64,000 bases of DNA from Tachypleus tridentatus. Taxonomy: Eukaryota; Arthropoda; Merostomata; Xiphosura; Limulidae. Below are positions 42,371-57,831 of the stretch, in pieces; positions within the stretch are counted from its first letter, which is position 1; every line of letters starts with the position of its first letter. The notes beneath the pieces were generated by a model. The model was given only the letters and a program-made list of their open reading frames with translations, was not told the origin of the DNA and ran no database searches. Made by a program: the position numbers and the translations under genes. The stretch lies in NCBI RefSeq assembly GCF_004210375.1, contig NC_134830.1, forward strand, positions 46,257,094 through 46,321,093, read 5' to 3'.

Positions 42371-42488
42371 AACTCCCGCTAGTACAGCAGTATGTCTACG
42401 GATTTACAACGCTAAAATCAGAGGATCGATTCCCCTCGGTGGACTCAGCAGATAGCCCGATGTGGCTTTGCCATAAGAAAACACACAC
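42371..42488 (+). repeat. SINE-C copy, well preserved
   Basis: aactcccgctagtacagcag, tatgtctacggatttacaac, gaggatcgattcccctcggt, gcagatagcccgatgtggct, then an (ac)n tail. It lies within a (gttt)n tract that is the tail of the neighbouring SINE-A. Confidence 0.85.
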
Positions 42489-57601: not shown

Positions 57602-57613
57602 AATTCATTAATT

Positions 57614-57742
57614 GTGTGTGTGTGTGCTTTTTTCGTATAGCAAAGCCACAAAGGGCTATCTGCTAAGCACACCGAGGAGAATCGAACCCCTGATTTTAGC
57701 GTTGTAAATCCGGAGACATACCGCTGTACTAGAGGGGGGCTT
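57614..57742 (-). repeat. SINE-C copy, 3' part of a tRNA-Pro/SINE chimera
   Basis: Minus-strand SINE-C: tctagtacagcggtatgtct (A box), ggggttcgattctcctcggt (B box), agcagatagccctttgtggc and a (CA)n tail. It is joined through ttttaaag to a tRNA-Pro sequence. The pair shares one 12-bp target duplication aattcattaatt (57602-57613 and 57820-57831). Confidence 0.9.
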
Positions 57743-57747
57743 TAAAA

Positions 57748-57819
57748 GGGCTCGTCCGGGATTTGAATCCGGGACCTCTCGCACCCAAAGCGAGAATCAT
57801 ACCCTTAGACCAACGAGTC
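57748..57819 (-). tRNA. tRNA-Pro (TGG)-like gene, probably a retroposed pseudogene
   Basis: A 72-nt minus-strand sequence with cloverleaf layout. The anticodon stem-loop is ctcgctttgggtgcgag with anticodon TGG (proline), the T arm is ccggattcaaatcccgg, and the acceptor ends are gactcgt/acgagcc. Compared with the usual metazoan tRNA-Pro it shows three G-to-A changes: base 2 (breaking the second acceptor pair), one in the D loop, and base 53 (breaking the conserved 53-61 pair). A TTTT terminator follows at once. It sits inside the target duplication of the adjoining SINE-C, so it was inserted with that SINE and is more likely a pseudogene than a working tRNA gene. Confidence 0.75.
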
Positions 57820-57831
57820 AATTCATTAATT

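What the first reader, a model, noticed from the sequence alone, without database searches (positions are those of the whole stretch)
57602..57831. Retroposed chimera of tRNA-Pro and a tRNA-derived SINE inside one target duplication
On the minus strand, a full 72-nt tRNA-Pro(TGG) is followed by TTTT, AAAG and a SINE-C with its (CA)n tail. Perfect 12-bp repeats aattcattaatt flank the whole unit, not the SINE alone, and the tRNA begins exactly at the repeat. The pair was therefore inserted as one molecule. Possible routes are read-through of the tRNA terminator into a SINE, or template switching of the LINE reverse transcriptase from SINE RNA to tRNA. A tRNA-first dimer could be a new SINE subfamily.
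Basis: partly seen in the sequence, partly recalled or inferred. Interest (0 to 1): 0.7.

Follow-up and report, generated by a model that had tools for sequence, protein, structure and literature searches.

The report
Precursor-tRNA fused to a SINE insertion
In what is very probably a horseshoe crab genome, an unfinished tRNA was copied into DNA together with a small jumping element as one insertion, most likely because the copying enzyme hopped from one RNA to the next, and similar fusions with other tRNAs are found elsewhere in the same genome.

Summary
On the minus strand, 57602-57831 is one 12-bp target duplication enclosing tRNA-Pro(TGG), TTTT, AAA and a tRNA-derived SINE ('SINE-C') with a (CA)n tail. 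One full-length copy was found, so it is no SINE subfamily. Array-type tRNA-Pro genes also end CCC-TTTT but have other flanks, and no read-through source was found. The same arrangement joins SINE-C to Lys, two Val, Met and Asp tRNAs: 6 of 6 events, window included, have a T-run at the joint and 8-13 nt duplications around the whole unit. A second SINE family shows it with weaker support (3 of 7 with a boundary duplication). The Lys donor matches an array gene over 87 nt, from two leader bases to the last T of its terminator, where the sequences part. tRNAs lie in sense in 6 of 45 hits, in none of 35 antisense-control hits. Best explanation: the LINE reverse transcriptase reached the SINE RNA 5' end and jumped to the U-tail of a Pol III transcript. 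RNA pre-ligation remains a rival. Such chimeras are a known kind; intact SINE plus unprocessed sense pre-tRNA is a new variant.

The parts
57820..57831 (-). 5' target-site duplication (aattaatgaatt), abutting the first tRNA base
57748..57819 (-). tRNA-Pro(TGG) retrocopy, full 72 nt, no CCA, no 5' leader; 3 G>A changes (positions 2, 15, 52) from the parent-type gene in L010
57744..57747 (-). TTTT: reads as the Pol III terminator / U-tail of the donor; also follows CCC in the array-type tRNA-Pro genes
57741..57743 (-). AAA at the junction; not in the 3' flank of the tRNA-Pro genes read and not part of the SINE 5' end; best read as untemplated addition at the jump (inference)
57627..57740 (-). 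SINE-C body: tRNA-derived head starting GCCCCCC, then a 3' region that by eye resembles that of the second SINE family
57614..57626 (-). (CA)n tail of the SINE
57602..57613 (-). 3' target-site duplication (aattaatgaatt)

Best explanation
A one-off retroposition chimera. A LINE-encoded reverse transcriptase nicked the target and started target-primed reverse transcription on the (CA)n tail of a SINE-C RNA. It copied the SINE to its 5' end, then continued on the 3' terminal U-tract of a tRNA-Pro precursor with unprocessed 3' end and copied that to its 5' end. The joined cDNA was inserted with a 12-bp target duplication. Shown: anatomy, target duplication around the whole unit, sense order, terminator T-run at the joint, one full-length copy, similar divergence of both halves, and independent cases with other tRNAs and a second SINE. 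Inferred: the enzyme, the jump itself and the untemplated origin of AAA. Further inference: because the U-tract becomes a TTTT terminator between tRNA and SINE, such a chimera should not be transcribed through, which would explain why it did not spread.
For: (1) Whole-unit target duplications in 6 of 6 tRNA/SINE-C events: 12 (window Pro), 12 (Val TAC), 10 (Val CAC), 11 (Met), 8 (Lys, the weakest) and 13 nt (Asp). Next to the SINE the best match was 7 nt or less in the 19 loci measured. In one search, 18 of 32 loci have an upstream match of 9 nt or more, against 48 of 488 mismatched pairs (9.8%). (2) One search did not require a T-run: the 6 tRNA hits recognised among 45 (5 events) all have TTTT at the joint and none has CCA. 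(3) The Lys donor matches array genes over query 2-88 of 99, that is AG leader + tRNA + trailer AGGTTATGTTTT, ending at the last T; 2 mismatches in 87, the next bases differ, and an independent Lys/SINE-A chimera keeps the same trailer. (4) Orientation: 6 of 45 sense, 0 of 35 antisense. (5) Both halves diverged alike, 3/72 and 3/95. (6) One non-LTR reverse transcriptase (silkworm R2) is shown to jump between separate templates, a step that needs prior untemplated addition or an equivalent overhang (PMC8857657: abstract and section 10 read).
Against: For tRNA/SINE-A only 3 of 7 Rfam-confirmed cases show a duplication at the donor boundary (L088, L098, L101); L090, L092, L096 and L097 do not. 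The LINE was not identified and no RNA or enzyme was tested. PMC8857657 section 10 states that chimeras in human L1 assays arose by pre-ligation, not by copying separate templates, and that an overhang of three or more untemplated A was non-productive for jumping. No empty site in a relative could be checked. My patterns required an almost intact SINE 5' end and a good B box, so jumps from inside a SINE and decayed tRNAs were not surveyed (the window's own tRNA is missed by the B-box patterns).
Confidence: 0.78

Rival explanations
1. The pre-tRNA and the SINE RNA were ligated before reverse transcription (as proposed for U6/L1), and the joined RNA was copied without a jump.
For: It gives the same DNA order and the same target duplication; PMC8857657 section 10 says L1 assay chimeras arise by pre-ligation.
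Against: Pol III U-tails carry 3'-OH and SINE RNAs a 5' triphosphate (recalled), not the ends that RtcB joins (recalled). 4 of the 6 tRNA/SINE-C joints carry 1-4 extra bases (AAA, AGAA, A, CT; by eye), although the 5 of 13 plain SINE-C copies with an adjacent duplication of 11 nt or more start exactly at the G. The other 2 joints have no extra base, which ligation would also give.
Confidence: 0.15
2. Read-through: Pol III passed a tRNA-Pro terminator into a SINE lying downstream, and this one transcript was retroposed.
For: It would give the same sense order and one target duplication.
Against: No second place with the tRNA-Pro 3' end, TTTT and SINE-C in order (exact matches only); the tRNA-Pro genes read have other 3' flanks; the same Lys trailer is followed by two different SINE families.
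Confidence: 0.03
3. Two independent insertions (or a SINE landing beside a tRNA pseudogene) with a chance 12-bp repeat.
For: tRNA genes and SINEs are both abundant here.
Against: Only two exact AATTCATTAATT in 64 kb, both at the boundaries; no adjacent duplication for the SINE alone (4 nt); similar fusions with other tRNAs seen in one orientation only.
Confidence: 0.02
4. A founder or member of a new tRNA-first dimeric SINE subfamily.
For: It has a tRNA-like promoter in front of a SINE with a usable tail.
Against: One full-length copy; the next 39 scored hits cover the SINE with at most a few bases of the joint (40 of 2314 candidates scored); a TTTT lies between the halves.
Confidence: 0.01

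Closest known systems
PittSINE emergence by template switching, passerine birds (PMC5729268; passages read)
   Same: A tRNA (Asp) joined 5' of SINE/LINE sequence by a proposed switch during target-primed reverse transcription.
   Different: There the head was replaced and the product became a family; the switch was inferred from comparing families. Here single junctions within target duplications, the entire SINE retained, donors ending at a T-run.
tRNA/LINE-1 chimeras, human (PMC13174262; passages and section 11 read)
   Same: tRNA and retroelement inserted as one unit, with 9-19 bp target duplications in the eight cases that the authors checked.
   Different: There 21 loci, typically tRNA halves, predominantly antisense, assigned to twin priming. 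Here sense, mostly full-length, with unprocessed 3' trailer, on SINEs.
U6 snRNA chimeras with L1, L2, RTE and the SINE Mon-1 (PMC4476161; passages read)
   Same: Small RNA joined 5' of a LINE or SINE with target duplications; the authors report no internal initiation for U6/L1.
   Different: Partner is U6 snRNA, not pre-tRNA.
WEIRD/Mg-SINE/MGL bipartite and tripartite chimeras of Magnaporthe (PMC2104539; passages read)
   Same: RNA joined to a SINE, and a triple unit within one target duplication; compare tRNA-Asp/SINE-C/SINE-C in L082.
   Different: Different donor RNA; the SINE is 5'-truncated there.
Pre-tRNA retropseudogenes in human (Schmitz et al. 2004, seen only as cited in PMC4476161)
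   Same: tRNA precursor retroposed.
   Different: Alone, not joined to a SINE (recalled).

Membership tests
template-switch (chimeric) retrogenes | two RNA copies fused inside one target-site duplication | tested here: met
   12 bp perfect around the unit; none for the SINE alone
template-switch (chimeric) retrogenes | donor sense and ending at an RNA 3' end | tested here: met
   T-run of the array-type genes at the joint; Lys case ends at the last T
template-switch (chimeric) retrogenes | made during reverse transcription and not by prior ligation | not testable with these tools
   needs biochemistry or RNA data
tRNA-derived dimeric SINE subfamily | many copies of the same dimer at different sites | tested here: not met
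   one full-length copy (40 of 2314 candidates scored)
functional tRNA-Pro gene | intact tRNA structure | tested here: inconclusive
   Rfam 43.3 bits against 56.7 for the parent type L010; 3 substitutions
functional tRNA-Pro gene | located in the gene's own context | tested here: not met
   lies inside a target duplication beside a SINE, away from the C1 array

The most novel reading that the evidence does not exclude
Pol III U-tails are a general landing pad for this animal's SINE-mobilising reverse transcriptase: at the end of a SINE RNA the enzyme adds a few untemplated bases, mostly dA, which pair with the 3' UUUU of pre-tRNAs and prematurely terminated SINE heads. This would be a route by which SINEs acquire tRNA heads, and the same U-tract would become an internal terminator that kills nearly all such products.
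Probability: 0.35. Interest if true: 0.72.

Novelty: new variant of a known kind. Interest (0 to 1): 0.52.

Why it matters
How SINEs get their tRNA heads is largely inferred from comparing families (e.g. PMC5729268). This genome holds several single junctions between tRNA precursors with unprocessed 3' ends and intact SINEs, bounded by target duplications and with RNA ends preserved. That would allow the switching rule (U-tract, sense, whole primary transcript, few extra bases) to be measured, and it offers a simple, testable reason why such products rarely found families.

Tried and rejected
Subfamily idea: rejected. Read-through: rejected for lack of a source locus. TTTTAAAGCCCCCC as a shared joint: 8 hits with up to one mismatch; only the window has a tRNA there, L046 has a SINE-A head and a T-run, the other 6 look like plain flanks (by eye). 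L100, picked as a possible tRNA/SINE-A case, is an ordinary SINE-A insertion (12-nt duplication right at the SINE). L069-L074 and L080 gave no tRNA. L066 was dropped from the duplication counts (no tail found). L001 and L046 are not among the 32 loci but are. In one search the L082 duplication was measured wrongly (wrong tail); one search corrects it. Of the 18 upstream matches of 9 nt or more, those of L095 and L097 are not at the donor boundary and look like chance, and in L091 29 nt of unclear origin lie between the duplication and the tRNA-like part. Minimum-energy folding of the tRNA did not give a cloverleaf and was not used. The passages of a horseshoe crab genome paper (PMC7815833) give 1.7 Gb for two species, smaller than G000, so they did not fix the species.

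The claim of a new variant rests on searches of the open library; subscription papers are mostly not covered.

Full report
What is there. On the minus strand the order is aattaatgaatt, a 72-nt tRNA-Pro(TGG), TTTT, AAA, a SINE beginning GCCCCCCTCTAGTACAG, a (CA)n tail and aattaatgaatt again. ARAGORN and Rfam (43.3 bits) both find the tRNA at 57748-57819, the only ARAGORN gene and the only Rfam hit at gathering threshold in the window. The 12-mer has only two exact copies in the 64 kb.

Which genome. The window lies in G000, contig C6, of a 2.17-Gb assembly in 205 contigs. The Pfam coagulin family gives 19 matches there, all over the cut-off, and none in 14 control genomes. Coagulogen is, to my knowledge (recalled), confined to horseshoe crabs, so the source is very probably a horseshoe crab; the species is not established.

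Not a subfamily, not read-through. A search with the 230-bp unit scored 40 of 2314 candidates. Only the window matches along its length; the other 39 cover the SINE with at most a few bases of the joint. A search with the tRNA part (40 of 112 candidates scored) finds tRNA-Pro genes mostly on C1 between 167.5 and 168.5 Mb, spaced at about 2.75-2.77 kb or multiples of it, plus dispersed copies. The array-type genes read have TTTT after CCC or nearly so, then non-SINE flanks such as CTTTCACTTTC; the dispersed gene in L021 has only TT. The pattern CGAGCCCTTTT-N(0-30)-CTAGTACAG occurs once, in the window.

The same thing elsewhere. One search gave 21 hits, (T-run required) 17, (no T-run required) 45. 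In one search, 6 hits (5 events, since L082 and L083 have nearly identical flanks) are recognisable tRNAs: Met(CAT), truncated on the 5' side (L068), Lys(TTT) (L076), Val(TAC) (L059), Val(CAC) (L065) and Asp with a deletion in the anticodon arm (L082). ARAGORN confirms Lys and both Val and so does Rfam; Met and Asp are identified by eye and were missed by both programs. The other 39 hits were judged from the printed letters or from loci, and not all of them were fetched; they include SINE heads in the tRNA's place, other repeats and chance. With the window there are six tRNA/SINE-C events. All six have TTTT at the joint and none has CCA. Several SINE-head fusions, e.g. L050, L061, L062, also end in a T-run inside one duplication; others, e.g. 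L064, L066 and L067, have no T-run.

Target duplications. For the six tRNA/SINE-C events the duplication around the whole unit is 12, 12, 10, 11, 8 and 13 nt. The 8 nt of Lys is the weakest: 17 of 380 mismatched pairs reach 8. In the Asp case the duplication encloses tRNA-Asp, SINE-C and a second SINE-C, as in published double jumps. With one uniform rule (18 SINE-C and 14 hand-picked SINE-A loci), 18 of 32 have an upstream match of 9 nt or more, against 48 of 488 mismatched pairs (9.8%); two of the 18 (L095, L097) are not at the donor boundary. Next to the SINE only 1 of 32 (L100) has 9 or more, and L100 proves to be an ordinary insertion. As a positive control, plain SINE-C copies show a duplication of 11 nt or more directly at the SINE start in 5 of 13 loci.

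A second SINE family. A pattern for B box, T-run and GGCCCGGCATGGCC (SINE-A, my label) gave 46 hits. I read 14 of these 46, chosen because the matched letters looked like a tRNA or a SINE-C head. 12 of the 14 were given to Rfam (not L093 and L094), which confirms a tRNA in 7: L088 Val, L090 Lys, L092 Asp, L096 Met, L097 (partial; Asn by eye), L098 Ala and L101 Glu (names by ARAGORN except L097). L093 and L094 carry SINE-C heads ending GGATATCTTTT; L091 is Asp-like with a deletion; L089, L095 and L099 look like 3' tRNA fragments or a decayed tRNA by eye; L100 is a chance hit. Boundary duplications are clear in 3 of the 7 (L088 12, L098 9, L101 8) and were not found in 4. So the evidence is weaker for this family, whose pattern also required the T-run.

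The donor is a primary transcript. The Lys donor in L076 matches the tRNA-Lys array on C13 (130.22-130.28 Mb, about 1.06 kb spacing) over positions 2-88 of 99. Direct comparison with L087 shows 87 nt with 2 mismatches, from the AG before the tRNA to the last T of AGGTTATGTTTT; the next bases are CTTGG in the gene and AGCCC in the chimera. In the independent Lys/SINE-A chimera L090 (7 mismatches in the 87) the likeness to the gene also stops at AG on the 5' side and at TTTT on the 3' side, followed by GGCCCGG; no duplication was found there to fix its 5' boundary. This fits a complete Pol III primary transcript. In the window the tRNA has no leader, so its 5' end is mature or the copy stopped there; its 3' end is unprocessed.

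Orientation control. With the tRNA reversed relative to the SINE there are 35 hits; 10 are SINE-A, 4 SINE-C and 21 other, none of the 21 with a tRNA A box in the 64 letters shown after the motif (matches were printed only to 80 letters and not fetched). Sense gives 6 of 45. Insertion near tRNA genes should not prefer one orientation.

Age. The tRNA half differs from the parent type at 3 of 72 positions, the SINE half from the majority of 30 copies at 3 of 95. This is what one insertion predicts.

Mechanism. Target-primed reverse transcription begins at the SINE tail, reaches the SINE 5' end, jumps to a U-tailed Pol III RNA and copies it. In PMC8857657 (abstract and section 10) the silkworm R2 enzyme needs untemplated addition, or an equivalent overhang, to jump; with balanced nucleotides it adds mostly A, and the authors call the resulting overhang of three or more non-productive for jumping. 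My extension, not tested: such dA overhangs would suit acceptors ending in UUUU, which would explain the T-runs. The same section says chimeras in human L1 assays came from pre-ligated RNA, which is the main rival. The AAA at this joint would be TTT on the cDNA, so it is not explained by dA addition.

Place among known things. Template-switch chimeras are well known: U6 with L1, L2, RTE and the SINE Mon-1 (PMC4476161), WEIRD/Mg-SINE (PMC2104539), human tRNA/L1 (PMC13174262, 21 loci, predominantly antisense halves), and the proposed origin of PittSINE by a switch from a SINE to tRNA-Asp (PMC5729268). I read passages of these, plus section 11 of PMC13174262. The present case is of that kind; what differs is the combination of sense pre-tRNA, exact terminator end, intact SINE and recurrence in one genome. 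I saw nothing describing it in the listings of searches, but the library is partial and for most papers I saw only the listing.

Noticed in passing
G000:C1:167568827-168414790 (L011-L020, L022-L038): Large tandem array of tRNA-Pro genes, spaced at about 2.75-2.77 kb or multiples, TGG and AGG anticodons both present, many copies with small indels, often in the T arm.
   Followed up: partly
G000:C13:130225164-130278106 (L087): Tandem array of tRNA-Lys(TTT) genes, about 1.06 kb spacing, 38 of the 40 scored matches.
   Followed up: partly
L052, L054, L060, L062, L093, L094: SINE-C heads ending in GGATATCT followed by T's or a close variant, unlike the SINE-C body, joined to SINE-C or SINE-A: they suggest a separate short Pol III transcript (perhaps the tRNA-like gene behind SINE-C) as a frequent donor.
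   Followed up: partly
L082 and L083 (C13:19.6 Mb and 24.0 Mb): tRNA-Asp + SINE-C + SINE-C inside one 13-nt duplication: a likely double template jump, present twice with nearly identical flanks in opposite contig orientation (probably a segmental duplication).
   Followed up: yes
L082, L091: Two Asp-like donors have lost part of the anticodon arm, as if the reverse transcriptase skipped the hairpin.
   Followed up: no
L055-L058 (C8:55.18 and 55.41 Mb): Tandem SINE-C heads joined by TGTAAAA(A)n; L056 and L058 show the last head in a full SINE-C with tail: multi-headed SINEs.
   Followed up: no
window 42379-42390: One-mismatch match to the SINE-C motif CTAGTACAGCGG on the + strand, perhaps a second SINE-C copy in the window.
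   Followed up: no
G000:C11:9.02 and 42.9 Mb, C7:19.2-29.1 Mb: Groups of coagulin-family (coagulogen) matches, which point to a horseshoe crab.
   Followed up: partly
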